From Actinomycetota bacterium (lineage in GTDB: Bacteria > Actinomycetota > Thermoleophilia > Solirubrobacterales > Solirubrobacteraceae): DNA of 64,000 bases. The stretch covers positions 1-64,000 of the forward strand of contig JAFDWH010000014.1 of the NCBI GenBank assembly GCA_018268595.1, given 5' to 3'. The position numbers were made by a program, and so were the translations under genes. The notes beneath the pieces are model-generated. The model did not search any database and was not told the DNA's origin. It worked only from the letters and a program-made list of their open reading frames with translations. Shown here in pieces: positions 12,603 to 48,939 of the stretch; the stretch's first letter is position 1, and every line of letters begins with the position of its first letter.

Positions 12603-13202
12603 TCAACTCATCCGAACGTAACCCAGTGCATCGGAAAAATCATGCACATTGCGGGAAACTCTGTCGGAGTAGTTGCCTTCGATCGTCTGAATCCTTCCGC
12701 CGGGAAGGACCTGCTCGACGATCCCGACGTGCTCGTGCAGGACGATCAGGTCGCCGGGGCGCGGCACGACACCCGGTCCGTTCGGGACCGCGCGGCCGGT
12801 GCGCTGGGCCCACGCGTAGAGCTGGTCGACGGAGCCGAAGCCCTCGCCGTGGTCGCCCAGTGGCGTGCCCGCCTGGCGCGCGACCCACGAGACGAAGTAG
12901 GCGCACCACGGGCCGACGCCGCTGCCGGCGGTCGCCGTGCGGTACTGCGCGATGCGCGGCGAGTCGTTCGAGCCGGGCGGCTGCTCGGCCTGCCCGACCT
13001 CGGCGCCGGCGATCGTCGTCATCGGCGAGCCGCTCGCGTTGCCCAGCAGGCTCGCGAACGAGGCGCTCGCGACGGGCGCGGAAGCGGCACTTGCGGTCGC
13101 GGTCGGAGCGGCGAGCGCGGAGGATGCGGGCGTCGCCGCCGGCTCGAGCACGAGCGCTCGCTCGATCTGCTCGATGCGGGCGAGTGCGAGCGGGAGCGAC
13201 AT
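12603..13202 (-). CDS. CHAP-domain peptidoglycan amidase/endopeptidase, flagellar-associated
   Basis: 199 residues. The C-terminal half is a CHAP domain with catalytic Cys100 (GPWCAYFVSWV), His158 (LHEHVGIVEQV) and Asn177 (EGNYSDRV). The N-terminus lacks a Sec signal peptide; instead it has an amphipathic helix (ALARIEQIERAL) and then SFASLLGNA at 48-56, a pattern also found in the flagellar transglycosylase at 36543-37274. Export through the flagellar apparatus is therefore inferred. A sigma-28-type promoter (13212-13239) sits 9 nt before the ATG. The gene follows the flagellin terminator. Likely role: opening the wall for the flagellar rod or filament. Confidence 0.8.
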   Translation of the reverse strand: MSLPLALARIEQIERALVLEPAATPASSALAAPTATASAASAPVASASFASLLGNASGSPMTTIAGAEVGQAEQPPGSNDSPRIAQYRTATAGSGVGPWCAYFVSWVARQAGTPLGDHGEGFGSVDQLYAWAQRTGRAVPNGPGVVPRPGDLIVLHEHVGIVEQVLPGGRIQTIEGNYSDRVSRNVHDFSDALGYVRMS

Positions 13203-13211
13203 CACTCCCGG

Positions 13212-14150: not shown

Positions 14151-14516
14151 TCATGCCGGTTCATCGGCACGGGCGCGCGAAGCTTGAGCGCGCTGCGCCT
14201 GCAGCGCGCGGACGGCGCGCAGCTCGGCGATCACGAGGTGGCGCCAGATCGTCACGGCGCACGCCCACGCGGCGAGGTAGACGACGACGCCGCCGGCGAT
14301 CGCGCGCAGCAGCGCGTCGGCCGCCGGGACGCCCGCGCGCCACGACAGGACGCCGACGAGCAGGAAGCCGCCGAGCCCGCCCCACGCTTTCGCGCGGGCG
14401 ACCTGGGCGGGGGCACGGGGATGGCTGGCGACGCTCGGAAGGGCCGCGTCGCCGGCGGTCGCTCTGCCGGCCGGCCTGGCGCCCTTCTTCGCGTCCTTGG
14501 CGCTCTTCTTCGCCAT
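14151..14516 (-). CDS. Small two-TM membrane protein in the flagellar operon, unknown
   Basis: 121 residues from the ATG at 14516; a GTG at 14522, overlapping the pilZ stop as GTGA, is an alternative start. The N-terminus is Lys/Ala-rich (MAKKSAKDAKKG). Two hydrophobic segments lie at about residues 44-62 and 68-92, followed by a basic amphipathic helix (IWRHLVIAELRAVRALQAQRAQ). No family is recognised. It sits between the PilZ gene and the flagellin gene, and its last codons carry the flagellin promoter. A role in motor tuning or membrane assembly of flagella is only a guess from position. Confidence 0.65.
   Translation of the reverse strand: MAKKSAKDAKKGARPAGRATAGDAALPSVASHPRAPAQVARAKAWGGLGGFLLVGVLSWRAGVPAADALLRAIAGGVVVYLAAWACAVTIWRHLVIAELRAVRALQAQRAQASRARADEPA
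14161..14188 (-). promoter_or_regulatory. Sigma-28-type promoter of flagellin
   Basis: Minus strand CTCAA-N15-GCCGATGA, then ACCGG; about 60 nt before the flagellin ATG, leaving a leader of about 50 nt with its own ribosome binding site. Best match to the classical TAAA-N15-GCCGATAA layout together with the fliO promoter. Confidence 0.75.
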
Positions 14517-14518
14517 CG

Positions 14519-15172
14519 TCACAGCTCCCCGTCGCGCGTGCGCTGGCGCGCGATCCGCTCCTGCTCGAACACGAAGCGCACGAGCTGGCGACGCGCGTCG
14601 CGGTCGATCTGCTCGATCGCGATGCCGCGCCGGCCGTCGTCGCCGACGCGCGCGACGCGGCCGCGGCCCTCGATCGGCGGCTCGCCGTCGACCGCGCGCA
14701 GCCGGAACGCGACGAGCGCGCCGACATCGAGCGCGTCGACGCTCGCCCAGCCGGCGGCGAGCAGTCCGTTGCCGCTGACGTTGACGGTCAGCGTGCCGTT
14801 CCAGTCGCCGGGCGCGTCGTCGGCGCCGACGCGCGCCAGCTCGAGCGGCCGCACCGTCCCCACGCGCACGAAGTCGCGCCGCTGGACGACGTCGACCGCG
14901 CCCTCGTGGTGGAAGTGGACGAGGTCGCGCGCGACGACGGTCCCGCGGCCTTCGAGCCGCACGAGCCCGCGCGGGGCCGGGAACTCGACCCACATCGGCG
15001 CGGCGTCGCCGAGCGCGAGCGCGCGGCGCGTGTCGAGCATCAGCACGACCGCGATCTTCGCGTCCGTCACCTGCCCGACGCGGCCGCGGTACTGCTCGCG
15101 GTCTGGAAGGGTGATGACGACGTCCTGCCGCAGGACGGGCAGGGGCGGCTTCGTCGGGGTCGCCGCGGTCAT
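14519..15172 (-). CDS. PilZ-domain c-di-GMP receptor (YcgR-like flagellar brake)
   Basis: 217 residues with an N-terminal YcgR/PilZN-like beta domain (about 12-95) and a C-terminal PilZ domain. The c-di-GMP-binding residues are present: the RxxxR motif at 99-103 (RRDFVR) and NxSxxG at 131-136 (NVSGNG). In flagellated bacteria such proteins bind c-di-GMP and slow or block the motor or rotor. The ATG overlaps the FlhF-like stop (ATGA), so it is translated as part of the export-gene operon, which fits a motility role. Confidence 0.85.
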   Translation of the reverse strand: MTAATPTKPPLPVLRQDVVITLPDREQYRGRVGQVTDAKIAVVLMLDTRRALALGDAAPMWVEFPAPRGLVRLEGRGTVVARDLVHFHHEGAVDVVQRRDFVRVGTVRPLELARVGADDAPGDWNGTLTVNVSGNGLLAAGWASVDALDVGALVAFRLRAVDGEPPIEGRGRVARVGDDGRRGIAIEQIDRDARRQLVRFVFEQERIARQRTRDGEL

Positions 15173-16119
15173 CGCAGGACGCGCTCCGCGAGCGTGGCCG
15201 GATCGGCGGGCGAGATGCCCTGGAAGTCCTGGACGTATGCGATCGGAAGACGCGTCGTGCACGCCAGCTCGACGGCCGCACCGACGTCGGCGTCCTGGGC
15301 ATCGAGGGAGAGGGCGAGCGCCGTGGGGCTCAGCGGTTGGAGGCGATCGAGCAGCGCGCGGGCGGTCGGAAGGTCGAGGTCGCCGGGCATCACGACGACC
15401 AGCTCGTCGAGCTCGAGCTGCGCGACGCGCGCGGCGAGCGCGTCGACCTCCGCGCGCTCGGCGGCGATCGGCGGCAGGTCGACGGCGAGGACCTGCTCGT
15501 CCGCGTCGGCGCGCTGCAGCAGCGCGCGCGCCTTGTCGAGCGAGGCGATCGCGCGGGCGTCGCGGCCCGCGCGCTTGTAGGCGCTCGCGAGCGCGTCGGC
15601 GCAGGCGGTCGAGCCGGGGCCGGCGAACGCGACGGCGAGGCCGCCGGCGCGGTGCGGCAGCGCGGTCGGGAGGCGGCGCGCGAGCGCGCGGCGGACGGCG
15701 GTCCGCAGGTCGGGCGCGAACGGCAGCTCGTGCGCCTCGGCGTCGGCGACGAGCCGCTCGGCGAACGCGTGGCTCATGCCGGCTTGCGTCAGCTCGGCGA
15801 CCGGGTCGCCGGAGGAGTGCGGATCTGTACATCTGTCGGCTGTAGAGACCCGCAGTGGTGCGTCGGCGGCCTCGGCGAGGAGCGCGGCGAACGTCTCGGG
15901 CTCCTCGTCGTATGTGTCGATCCGCGCGTGGCCGGCGGTCGCGTCGACCTCGACGAAGCGCTGCTGGAAGAAGCCGCCGATCCCGCCCATCAGCCCGTCG
16001 CGCTGTCTCAGCACGACGGCGTCGGGACCGAGCGCCTCGCGGATCTGGGGCAGCACCTCCTCCAACGTTCTGCCGCGGAACGTCTGGACGGCTTCGGCGG
16101 TCGGGGCGGTCGTGCTCAT
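15169..16119 (-). CDS. flhF: FlhF-like protein with degenerate SRP-GTPase domain
   Basis: 316 residues. The N-terminus matches FlhF (FRGRTLEEVLPQIREALGPDAVVLRQRDG... at 14-42), and the position between flhA and pilZ fits flhF. The G-domain fold is recognisable, but its nucleotide motifs are gone. The P-loop position reads GPGSTACA (167-174) instead of GPTGVGKT, the DTAG position reads DLPP (214-217), and TKLD reads LSLD (270-273). The C-terminal family signature LPIAYVQDFQGI is kept. The frame is open throughout, so this is not a frameshift. It probably serves as a GTP-independent scaffold for flagellar placement. Coupled by ATGA to flhA and pilZ. Confidence 0.8.
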   Translation of the reverse strand: MSTTAPTAEAVQTFRGRTLEEVLPQIREALGPDAVVLRQRDGLMGGIGGFFQQRFVEVDATAGHARIDTYDEEPETFAALLAEAADAPLRVSTADRCTDPHSSGDPVAELTQAGMSHAFAERLVADAEAHELPFAPDLRTAVRRALARRLPTALPHRAGGLAVAFAGPGSTACADALASAYKRAGRDARAIASLDKARALLQRADADEQVLAVDLPPIAAERAEVDALAARVAQLELDELVVVMPGDLDLPTARALLDRLQPLSPTALALSLDAQDADVGAAVELACTTRLPIAYVQDFQGISPADPATLAERVLR

Positions 16120-18212
16120 CCGTCGATCACTCCAATCGTCTCCACGCTGATGCCGGCCGCGATCTCGTTGTAGGAGCAGACCGCGAGCTGCGGGATCGCC
16201 TGCTCCACGAGCCGCCGCAGGTGGCGGCGCACGCGCGCCGAGCAGAGCAGCACCGGCCGGGTTCCACGCGCGACGCCATGCTCCATCTGAGTTCGGAGTG
16301 CGCTCACCAAAGCCTGCGCGCGGCTCGGCTCCAGCGCGAGGAACTCGCCGTCCGTCGTCGCCGTGATCGCAGCCGCGACCTCGGCCTCGACCGCCGGGTC
16401 GAGCGCGATCGCGCGCAGCCGCCGCTCGCCGTCCACGTGCGGCGCGACGATCGTGCGGCCGAGCGCCTGGCGCGCGTACTCGGCCAGCAGCGAGGGATCG
16501 CGGGTGACGCGCGCCTTGTCGCCGACCGCCTCGACGATCGCACCCAGGTCGCGGATCGAGACGCCCTCCGCCAGCAGCGCCTGGAGGACGCGCTGCAGCT
16601 CGCCGAGCGTCAGCACATCCGGCACGACCTCCTCGACGACCGCGGCGTTCGACTCCTTGAGCTGCTCCAAGAGCTGTCTGACGTCCTGGCGCGAGAGCAG
16701 GTCGGCGGCGTGCGCGCGGATCGTCTCGGTCAGGTGCGTGACGATCACCGACTCGCCGTCGACGACCGTGTAGCCGAGCGCCTCCGCCTCCGCGCGCTGC
16801 GCGTCGGCGACCCACGTGGCGGGCAGGCCGAACGCCGGCTCGGTCGTCGGCACGCCGCCGGCGAGCTGGCCGAGCGCGTCGCCGGGGTCCATCGCGAGCT
16901 GGTGGCCGGCCATCAGCCGGCCGCGCGCGACCTCGCTGCCGCGCACCTTCAAGACGTACTCGTGCGAGTCGAGCCCCAGCTCGTCGTGGATGCGCACCGG
17001 CGGGATCACCATGCCGAGGTCGGCGGCGATCTGGCGGCGGATCACCGACACGCGCGAGAGCAGCGTGCCGCCCGAGGCGGCGTCGACGAGCGGGACGAGC
17101 CCGAAGCCGATCGCCAGCTCGAGCGGGTCGAGCGGAAGCGCCTCCAGCGCCGCGTCGCGGACCGCCGGGACGGCAGTGCCCTCCGCGTCCGCGAGCGCCG
17201 CGGCCTCGTCGGCGACGGCGAGCGGACCGCCGTCGCGCATCGCCCAACCCAGCGCGAGGAAGCCGCCGCCGATCAGCAGGAACGGCAGCTTCGGCAGGCC
17301 CGGCACGAGCGCGAAGGTGCAGATCACGCCGCCGGCGACCATCGGCGCCTTGCGCTGGCCGAGGATCTGGCTGGCGACGTCCGAGCCGAGGTCTCTGTCG
17401 GAGGCGGCGCGCGTGACGATGATGCCGGTCGCGACCGAGATCAGCAGCGCCGGGATCTGCGCCGCGAGGCCGTCGCCGACGGTCAGCAGGCTGAAGTGCT
17501 GGATCGCCTCGCTGAACGGCAGCCCCTGCTGCATCACGCCGACGACGATGCCGCCGACGAGGTTGATCAGCGTGATCAGCACCGCCGCCATCGCGTCGCC
17601 CTTGACGAACTTCGAGGCGCCGTCCATCGCGCCGTAGAAGTCCGCCTCTCGGCTGATCTCGGCGCGCCGCTGGCGGGCCTCCTCGTCGGTGATCAGGCCC
17701 GCGTTGAGGTCGGCGTCGATCGCCATCTGCTTGCCCGGCATCGCGTCGAGCGTGAAGCGCGCGCCGACCTCCGCGACGCGCCCCGCGCCGTTCGTCACGA
17801 CGACGAACTGGATCACGATCAGGATCAGGAAGATCACGAGGCCGACGACGACGTTCCCGCCGACGACGAAGTGGCCGAAGGCGGCGACGACATGGCCGGC
17901 GTCGCCTCTCGTGAGGATCAGGCGCGTGACCGAGACGTTGATCGCGAGACGGAACATCGTCGTCAGCAGCAGCAGCGACGGGAACGACGCGAAGTCGAGC
18001 GCGCGGTTGAGGTAGAGCGTCGCGACGACGATCGCGAGGCCGCACGAGATGTTCAGCGTGATGAAGAGGTCGAGCAGCGCCGCCGGCAGCGGGATCACCA
18101 GCATCGTCACGATCAGGACGACGCCGACCGCGGCCAGCAGGTCGGTGTGGCGCAGCAGCCGCTGCAACGAGCCGGCGGCGCCGGCGCCTGGTCTCACGGC
18201 GAGCGCGCTCAT
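16116..18212 (-). CDS. flhA: Flagellar biosynthesis protein FlhA
   Basis: 698 residues. The N-terminal half has about eight membrane segments, with LLLLTTMFRLAINVSVTRLIL and the FHIPEP-family cytosolic loop (VVTNGAGRVAEVGARFTLDAMPGKQMAIDADLNAG). The C-terminal half is the nonameric cytosolic substrate-docking ring. Central energy-transducing component of the type III export gate. Starts with a TGATG overlap on flhB and ends with ATGA into flhF. Normal length for the family. Confidence 0.97.
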   Translation of the reverse strand: MSALAVRPGAGAAGSLQRLLRHTDLLAAVGVVLIVTMLVIPLPAALLDLFITLNISCGLAIVVATLYLNRALDFASFPSLLLLTTMFRLAINVSVTRLILTRGDAGHVVAAFGHFVVGGNVVVGLVIFLILIVIQFVVVTNGAGRVAEVGARFTLDAMPGKQMAIDADLNAGLITDEEARQRRAEISREADFYGAMDGASKFVKGDAMAAVLITLINLVGGIVVGVMQQGLPFSEAIQHFSLLTVGDGLAAQIPALLISVATGIIVTRAASDRDLGSDVASQILGQRKAPMVAGGVICTFALVPGLPKLPFLLIGGGFLALGWAMRDGGPLAVADEAAALADAEGTAVPAVRDAALEALPLDPLELAIGFGLVPLVDAASGGTLLSRVSVIRRQIAADLGMVIPPVRIHDELGLDSHEYVLKVRGSEVARGRLMAGHQLAMDPGDALGQLAGGVPTTEPAFGLPATWVADAQRAEAEALGYTVVDGESVIVTHLTETIRAHAADLLSRQDVRQLLEQLKESNAAVVEEVVPDVLTLGELQRVLQALLAEGVSIRDLGAIVEAVGDKARVTRDPSLLAEYARQALGRTIVAPHVDGERRLRAIALDPAVEAEVAAAITATTDGEFLALEPSRAQALVSALRTQMEHGVARGTRPVLLCSARVRRHLRRLVEQAIPQLAVCSYNEIAAGISVETIGVIDG

Positions 18213-47192: not shown

Positions 47193-47800
47193 CCGCCCAG
47201 CTCCGCCGCCACCAGCTCGCGGGCGCGCGCGAGCTGGGTCTCGATCGAGGCGTCGACCTGGCCCTCGTCGGTGCGCACGACGGCGCCCCCGCGCGACAGG
47301 CGCCGCTCGGCCTGCACCTCGCAGTGCTCGATCCCGCCCAGCTCGCCCGCGAAGCCGCCAGCGGCGGCGCGCACCAGCTCGAGGTCGTCGGGGTGGACCA
47401 GCACCGTCACGCGCCGGCGCTCGCCGAGCCGCCGCAGCGCGCCGCGCACGACGTCGAGCACGCGCTCGGGCTCAACCGCCAACGCCCCGGCGACGACCTT
47501 CTCCGCCAGCGACACCGCGAGCGACACCGCGTCGCGCTCGACCGCATCGGCGGTCGCGTCGCGCAACGCGTCGAGCTCCAGGCGGGCCGCCTCCAGCGCG
47601 GCCAGCGCGGACGCGACCTGCGCGCGCCCCTCCTCCAAACCCGCCGACAGCCCGTCGGCGTGGCCCTCCGCGCGCGCCTGGGCGCGGATCGCGGCGGCCT
47701 CCGCCTGCGCCGCCGCCAGCGGCGACTCCAAGTCGCGCAGCGTCACGGCGGGCGCCGGCTCGAGCGGCTCGAACGCGTAGGGCTCCGGATCGGCGGCCAT
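47189..47800 (-). CDS. fliH: Flagellar export regulator FliH
   Basis: 203 residues. N-terminal Ala/Glu-rich coiled coil (ARAEGHADGLSAGLEEGRAQVASALAALEAARLELDALRDA) and a C-terminal globular domain (SLAEKVVAGALAVEPERVLDVVRGALRRL, VHPDDLELVRAA, and GGAVVRTDEGQVDASIETQLARAREL, a V-ATPase E-like ending). It binds and inhibits FliI. Overlaps fliG and fliI. Confidence 0.9.
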   Translation of the reverse strand: MAADPEPYAFEPLEPAPAVTLRDLESPLAAAQAEAAAIRAQARAEGHADGLSAGLEEGRAQVASALAALEAARLELDALRDATADAVERDAVSLAVSLAEKVVAGALAVEPERVLDVVRGALRRLGERRRVTVLVHPDDLELVRAAAGGFAGELGGIEHCEVQAERRLSRGGAVVRTDEGQVDASIETQLARARELVAAELGG

Positions 47801-48876
47801 CAGACGACCGCGTCCCCGGCGCCGCGCCCGATCACGAGCGTGCCGGCGTCCTCCAGGCGGCGCACGACGCCGACGATGCGGCCCTGCGCCTCCTCCACCA
47901 CGCGCTTCTTCTGCGGCGGCTGGAACTCCATCTCCTCGCGCAGCATCTGCGCGCCGCGCTCGGACATGTTCGACAACAGCCGCTCCTTGACGGTCTCCTC
48001 GACGCCACGCAGCGCGAGCGCGAGGTCTCTCTGGTCGACCTCGCGCAGCACGAGCTGGATCGAGCGGTCGTCGAGTCTCGCGATGTCCTCGAAGACGAAC
48101 AGCAGCCGCCGCACCTCGTCGCCCAGCTCGGCGTCCTGCTCGGCGATCGTGTCGAGCACGTTGCGCTCGGTCGGGCGGTCGGTGTGGTTGAGGATCTCGG
48201 CGAGCGACTTGACGCCGCCGGCCGCCTGGAAGTCCTGCTGGACGACCGTCTCCAGCTTGCGCCGCATCACGTTCTCGATCTCGCGCACGACGTCAGGCGG
48301 CGTCTCGCCCATGCGCGCGATCCGCAGCGCGATGTCGGCCTGCTGCTCCTCCGGCAGGCACGACAGCACCTGCGCCGCGAGGGTCGTGTGCAGGTTCGCG
48401 ACGACCAGCGCGATCGTCTGCGGCGACTCGGAGCGCAGGAACGTGACGATGTGGTCCGCCGGCGTGCGGCGCAGGAACTCGAACGGGCGGCGCTCGATCA
48501 CCGTCGCGAGGCGGCCGATGATCTCCGCCGCGCGGTCCGAGCCCAACGACCGCTCCAGCACCTCGCGCGCGTAGTCGACGCCGCCGGTCGCGAGCGAGTC
48601 GTACGCCTGCACGACCGCGGCCAGCTCCTCGAACACGTAGGCGGAGGTGTCGGGCGAGATCTGGCCCGACTTCGCCATCTCCAGCGAGAGCGTCTCGATC
48701 TCGTCGTCGCGCAGGTGCCGGAAGACCTCGGCCGCCTTCTCCGGCCCGAGCGCGATCAGCAGCACCGCCGCCTTCTGGCGGCCGGCGAGGCGCGGAACGA
48801 CTCTGGCGGGGAGCCGCGGGAGCGCGTCGCGCTCGGCCAGCTCCTCGACGGCGTCGGCGATGTCAACGGCAGGCAT
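47800..48876 (-). CDS. fliG: Flagellar motor switch protein FliG
   Basis: 358 residues. N-terminal FliF-binding domain (GRQKAAVLLIALGPEKAAEVFRHLRDDEIETLSLEMAKSG), middle EHPQR-like region (ESPQTIALVVANLHTTLAAQVLSCLPEEQQADIALRIARM), and C-terminal torque domain with charged residues (LLFVFEDIARLDDRSIQLVLREVDQRDLALALRG). The start ATG at 48876 is chosen because CGGGAG lies 8 nt upstream; a TTG 42 nt earlier is less likely. Overlaps fliH by one base. Confidence 0.95.
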   Translation of the reverse strand: MPAVDIADAVEELAERDALPRLPARVVPRLAGRQKAAVLLIALGPEKAAEVFRHLRDDEIETLSLEMAKSGQISPDTSAYVFEELAAVVQAYDSLATGGVDYAREVLERSLGSDRAAEIIGRLATVIERRPFEFLRRTPADHIVTFLRSESPQTIALVVANLHTTLAAQVLSCLPEEQQADIALRIARMGETPPDVVREIENVMRRKLETVVQQDFQAAGGVKSLAEILNHTDRPTERNVLDTIAEQDAELGDEVRRLLFVFEDIARLDDRSIQLVLREVDQRDLALALRGVEETVKERLLSNMSERGAQMLREEMEFQPPQKKRVVEEAQGRIVGVVRRLEDAGTLVIGRGAGDAVV

Positions 48877-48939
48877 CCGCGACTCCCGGAATCGGCTTTC
48901 GCTCTCCCGCGCCCGCAAGCGGGTCGCGTCCGAGCGACG

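What the first reader, a model, noticed from the sequence alone, without database searches (positions are those of the whole stretch)
15169..16119. FlhF-like protein that has lost every GTP-binding motif, without FlhG
FlhF controls flagellar position and number by GTP-driven dimerisation and is reset by FlhG. Here P-loop, DTAG and TKLD positions read GPGSTACA, DLPP and LSLD, yet the frame is intact, the N-terminus and C-terminal signature are kept and the gene is coupled to flhA. No flhG follows; a PilZ protein takes its place. This suggests a constitutive, nucleotide-free placement factor, possibly controlled by c-di-GMP.
Basis: partly seen in the sequence, partly recalled or inferred. Interest (0 to 1): 0.75.

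Follow-up and report, generated by a model that had tools for sequence, protein, structure and literature searches.

The report
FlhF stripped of its GTP-binding site
A flagellar placement protein that normally works as a GTP-driven switch has lost its GTP-binding site in this soil bacterium, as the last step of a loss that runs through its whole class after the switch's partner protein disappeared, while its flagellum-binding end and overall fold are kept.

Summary
Window 15169-16119 (-) is an intact 316-codon gene whose start and stop overlap flhA and a PilZ gene. It is an FlhF ortholog: its N-terminus folds like the solved FliG-interaction domain (FID) of FlhF, residues 103-316 like FlhF and other SRP-GTPase NG domains. 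The P-loop is deleted (GxGGxGKT to GP---GST), the switch-I/IBD segment is deleted, DTAG reads DLPP and TKLD reads SLDA. The genome has no second FlhF (only Ffh and FtsY) and no FlhG/MinD-type ATPase.

This is not an isolated oddity. Early-branching actinobacterial lineages have canonical FlhF beside FlhG. Thermoleophilia lack FlhG (0 of 17 genomes) and the switch-I DTYR; DTAG then became DTPx and TKLD became THAD; the P-loop lysine was replaced in about three other lineages. All five congeners keep GxGGxGKT, so the window gene is the extreme.

PilZ follows flhF even where FlhF is canonical, so it did not replace the lost GTP site; c-di-GMP control of FlhF is unsupported. Best reading: a nucleotide-free FlhF adaptor keeping FliG binding in a peritrichous lineage. 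Main rival: an NG domain under relaxed constraint (dN/dS near 1).

The parts
15169..16119 (-). flhF-like gene, 316 codons plus stop: FlhF ortholog without GTP-binding motifs
15937..16086 (-). residues 12-61: N-terminal strand-helix-strand-strand domain matching the FliG-interaction domain (FID) of FlhF; 81-85% identical to congeners
15607..15630 (-). residues 164-171 AFAGPGST: remnant of the P-loop (G1), three residues deleted, Lys absent
15481..15579 (-). residues 181-213: stretch from which the switch-I/IBD segment (G2) is missing relative to congeners
15469..15483 (-). residues 213-217 VDLPP at the G3 (DTAG) position
15298..15309 (-). residues 271-274 SLDA at the G4 (TKLD) position
15172..15216 (-). 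residues 302-316 ISPADPATLAERVLR: conserved C-terminal signature
16116..18212 (-). flhA, upstream, overlapping by ATGA
14519..15172 (-). PilZ gene with both c-di-GMP motifs (RRDFVR 14864-14881, NVSGNG 14765-14782); occupies flhG's usual slot
47800..48918 (-). fliG, the expected partner of the FID

Best explanation
A true FlhF ortholog that has become a pseudo-GTPase. Shown: the FliG-binding-type N-terminal domain and the NG fold persist while the nucleotide site is gone, and no FlhG exists in the genome. Inferred: it acts as a nucleotide-free adaptor. The FID holds FliG (with FliF) during early basal-body assembly and the NG fold is a passive docking surface. No GTP-driven homodimer forms and nothing resets it, so it gives little or no control of position or number, which fits the peritrichous flagella of Conexibacter. 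Evolutionary order read from current sequences: FlhG and switch-I DTYR lost at or near the base of Thermoleophilia, then DTAG to DTPx, then TKLD to THAD, then the P-loop (Lys to Arg in several lineages, deletion here).
For: FID fold match to 9en1, probability 1.00, TM 0.76 by target, and 81-85% identity to congeners. NG fold Z 19.4 to FlhF 8r9r and 17.7 to 2px3; family profile finds FlhF 8r9r first, E 7e-25. P-loop reduced to three residues at pLDDT above 90. No FlhG in 17 Thermoleophilia versus 3 of 3 outgroup genomes. DTYR in 12 of 12 FlhFs of those early-branching lineages, in none of the class. Repeated loss of the P-loop Lys elsewhere. Retained residues lie away from the nucleotide site. 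Literature: the FID alone binds FliG and NG binds HubP independently of nucleotide (PMC11236974); P. aeruginosa FlhF without its G domain still supports non-polar flagella (PMC12713375); C. woesei is peritrichous (PMC3035278).
Against: NG dN/dS of the window lineage is about 0.9-1.05, so the NG fold may be under weak selection. No binding data. In several other species GTP binding by FlhF is needed for function (reviewed in PMC12713375). Flagellation of the window species is unknown.
Confidence: 0.6

Rival explanations
1. The gene is decaying: only the FID still has a function and the NG domain is drifting toward loss.
For: NG identity to congeners 41-46% while FlhA is 80-82% and the FID 81-85%; NG dN close to dS; long linker and IBD deleted; genome smaller than those of congeners.
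Against: No stop or frameshift, GC3 0.95, 45% identity kept, retained residues non-random (N domain 20/29, central helix 7/8, C-terminus 17/27), confident fold. NG86 underestimates dS at such GC3.
Confidence: 0.22
2. The downstream PilZ protein replaces FlhG and controls this FlhF by c-di-GMP.
For: Overlapping genes, c-di-GMP motifs intact, 13 GGDEF matches in the genome, adjacency conserved over much of the class.
Against: Adjacency also occurs beside FlhF with intact P-loop, DTAG and TKLD, and is missing in G072 and G078, which lost the P-loop Lys. YcgR/MotI-type PilZ proteins are known motor brakes (own knowledge). No direct evidence of interaction.
Confidence: 0.08
3. The protein still binds a nucleotide in a non-canonical way, or an assembly or sequencing error hides a normal site.
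For: Relatives with DTPx/THAD keep GxGGxGKT and may still bind nucleotide.
Against: The loop after the first G-domain strand has three residues, too short for a P-loop; in-frame changes spread over G1 to G4 with about 45% identity elsewhere are not error-like; other lineages show the same trend.
Confidence: 0.06

Closest known systems
FlhF of Shewanella putrefaciens, Bacillus subtilis, Pseudomonas
   Same: FID-linker-NG architecture, gene directly after flhA, NG fold, C-terminal signature
   Different: G1, switch I, G3 and G4 absent; no FlhG; IBD deleted; linker nearly gone
FlhF of Conexibacter arvalis and C. woesei (L035, L036)
   Same: Orthologous, same operon with PilZ, FID nearly identical, no FlhG
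   Different: They keep GxGGxGKT, DTPA and THAD, an IBD and a roughly 300-residue linker
Pseudo-GTPases in general (e.g. the pseudoGTPase domains of p190RhoGAP)
   Same: GTPase fold kept without nucleotide-binding motifs
   Different: Those are eukaryotic; no SRP-type FlhF example was found in the papers searched

Membership tests
FlhF | N-terminal FliG-interaction domain | tested here: met
   TIGR03499 match to residues 11-75; best fold match 9en1
FlhF | NG domain of SRP-GTPase fold | tested here: met
   Z 19.4 to 8r9r, 17.7 to 2px3; profile E 7e-25 to 8r9r
FlhF | Gene in the flagellar operon next to flhA | tested here: met
   ATGA overlap with flhA, conserved in relatives
FlhF | GTP-binding motifs G1, G3 and G4 | tested here: not met
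   so it is an FlhF ortholog by descent, not an FlhF GTPase
FlhF | GTP binding, dimerisation, binding of FliG | not testable with these tools
   needs biochemistry
FlhF/FlhG two-component switch | FlhG present, with DQAxxLR | tested here: not met
   no FlhG/MinD-type protein in the genome
PilZ c-di-GMP effector (neighbouring gene) | PilZ domain with RxxxR and [DN]xSxxG | tested here: met

The most novel reading that the evidence does not exclude
A whole bacterial class has dismantled the FlhF/FlhG switch: once FlhG was lost, FlhF turned into a nucleotide-independent FliG holder, and in several lineages, this one furthest, its GTP site was abolished while the NG fold stayed under selection for a new docking role.
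Probability: 0.4. Interest if true: 0.75.

Novelty: new variant of a known kind. Interest (0 to 1): 0.6.

Why it matters
FlhF is treated as a GTP switch whose reset by FlhG sets flagellar place and number. A natural series, from canonical FlhF with FlhG, through no FlhG and altered motifs, to no P-loop at all, separates the GTP-independent job of FlhF (holding FliG) from the switch, and predicts that the switch is dispensable for building peritrichous flagella. It can be tested in cultured Conexibacter species.

Tried and rejected
A protein scan of genome contigs found only C. arvalis. A single-sequence PDB search gave only spurious hits; the profile search solved this. TPR hits in Pfam (E 0.06 or worse) rejected as chance. 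The weak PF00448 match on contig 31 is an ArsA-like ATPase, not a second FlhF. L041 (G030) was labelled Lys-kept in the tree, but its G domain is masked and unreadable, so the 4 changes the tree counts for Lys loss reduce to about 3 among those rows. Hypothesis that PilZ is gained where the GTP site is lost: rejected, PilZ also stands next to FlhF with DTAG/TKLD. dN/dS by NG86 is only a rough guide at GC3 of 0.95.

Full report
OBSERVATION. The gene lies on the minus strand, 15169-16119, 316 codons, starting inside the flhA stop (ATGA) and ending inside the start of a PilZ gene. Pfam finds no GTPase domain; NCBIfam FlhF matches only residues 11-75. In alignment with congeners the P-loop GAGGGGKT is GP---GST, the switch-I/IBD segment is deleted, the DTAG position (DTPA in congeners) is DLPP, and the TKLD position (THAD in congeners) is SLDA.

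STRUCTURE. An AlphaFold2 model from 20 aligned homologues has mean pLDDT 87, with most of the NG domain above 95. Foldseek and VIA-align place residues 94-316 on SRP-GTPase NG domains, including FlhF of S. putrefaciens (8r9r, Z 19.4, 209 residues, 3.2 A) and B. subtilis (2px3, Z 17.7). The loop after the first G-domain strand has only three residues (167-169), so no P-loop can form there. The family profile hits FlhF 8r9r first, E 7e-25. The N-terminal domain modelled alone (strand-helix-strand-strand) has the solved FliG-interaction domain of FlhF (9en1) as its best fold match, probability 1.00, TM 0.76 by target length, although the E-value is 0.13 for so small a domain.

GENOME. Other SRP GTPases in the genome are only Ffh and FtsY. 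ParA-like ATPases are three Soj-type proteins, Mrp and an ArsA-like pair; none is of the MinD/FlhG type. FliG is in the window at 47800-48918. There are 13 GGDEF matches.

RELATIVES. Homologues were collected from the order, phylum, family and class; 80 NG domains were aligned, four of them Ffh-type by their motifs. FlhF with DTYR, DTAG and TKLD occurs in early-branching actinobacterial families (f12, f14, f26); in the three genomes read in detail it sits beside an FlhG, with KDQAKKLR visible in two and KDQAEGLR in the third. A query with one of these FlhGs finds it in those three genomes and in none of 17 Thermoleophilia, where only weak ParA/Mrp-type matches appear. The switch-I DTYR motif (DFFR in one) is present in all 12 such FlhFs and in no Thermoleophilia FlhF whose segment could be read. 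Within the class, family f5 keeps DTAG and TKLD in part of its members (DTPG in others), f9 and others have DTPG and altered G4, and the window's order has DTPx and THAD almost throughout. All five congeners keep GxGGxGKT or GAAGSGKT; one is C. arvalis (L004), another is C. woesei by exact genome length 6,359,369 bp (against PMC3035278). The P-loop Lys is Arg in G072 and G078 (genus g9), in G002, G085 and G006 (g16) and in G578 (f8), and lost in G487 (g9; GTSGSDRQ). The FlhA tree separates the window, g9 and g16. One g9 row in that tree (G030) has an unreadable G domain.

RATES. Identity of the window protein to congeners is 81-85% in the FID and 80-82% in FlhA, but 41-46% in NG, where congeners share 71-82% among themselves. 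Simple NG86 dN/dS for NG is 0.9-1.1 against 0.4-0.8 among congeners. The loss is not uniform: 16 of 63 congener-invariant residues are kept in G1, switch I/IBD, G3 and G4, against 51 of 80 in the N domain, central elements and C-terminus (Fisher p 5e-6; 0.004 if the deleted IBD is left out). The frame is open and GC3 is 0.95.

PILZ. The PilZ gene has both c-di-GMP motifs. It overlaps flhF in most Solirubrobacterales read and in f5 members with DTAG/TKLD FlhF, and is not seen after flhF in G072 and G078, which lost the Lys. It therefore predates the loss of the GTP site and is not its consequence; a motor-brake role is at least as likely.

MECHANISM. Published work shows that the FID binds FliG and that NG binds the pole marker HubP with or without nucleotide (PMC11236974), and that P. 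aeruginosa FlhF lacking its G domain supports flagella at non-polar sites (PMC12713375). C. woesei is peritrichous (PMC3035278). I infer a nucleotide-free FliG adaptor. A survey of actinobacterial flagella used FlhF and FlhG as queries and says that later classes lack FlhF; the passages I read do not mention motif loss (PMC10746217). I found no report of a pseudo-GTPase FlhF.

LIMITS. No binding or genetic data; the window species' flagellation is unknown; the class-wide order of losses is read from extant states without formal ancestral reconstruction; the library of papers is partial.

Noticed in passing
L035, L036, L139, L140 (Conexibacter congeners): Congeners carry a roughly 300-residue or longer Ala/Pro/Arg-rich linker between FID and NG that is nearly absent in the window protein; the window genome is also the smallest of the genus sample (3.57 Mb against 3.9-6.4 Mb).
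   Followed up: partly
L160/L187 (G578, another family of the class): FlhF with P-loop GTARSGRTH, a further apparently independent Lys-to-Arg change.
   Followed up: partly
L154 (G487, contig of 3.5 kb): FlhF NG domain with GTSGSDRQ at the P-loop, DLPI and TAMD: a second near-complete loss; its N-terminal part is not on the contig.
   Followed up: partly
L048, L051 (genus g9): These lineages with Arg in the P-loop show no PilZ-motif ORF directly after flhF.
   Followed up: partly
window 12603-13205 (-): ORF reading like a CHAP-type cell-wall hydrolase next to the flagellin gene; a candidate wall-opening enzyme for the flagellar rod.
   Followed up: no
window 14151-14540 approx. (-): Small putative membrane protein between PilZ and flagellin, not identified.
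   Followed up: no
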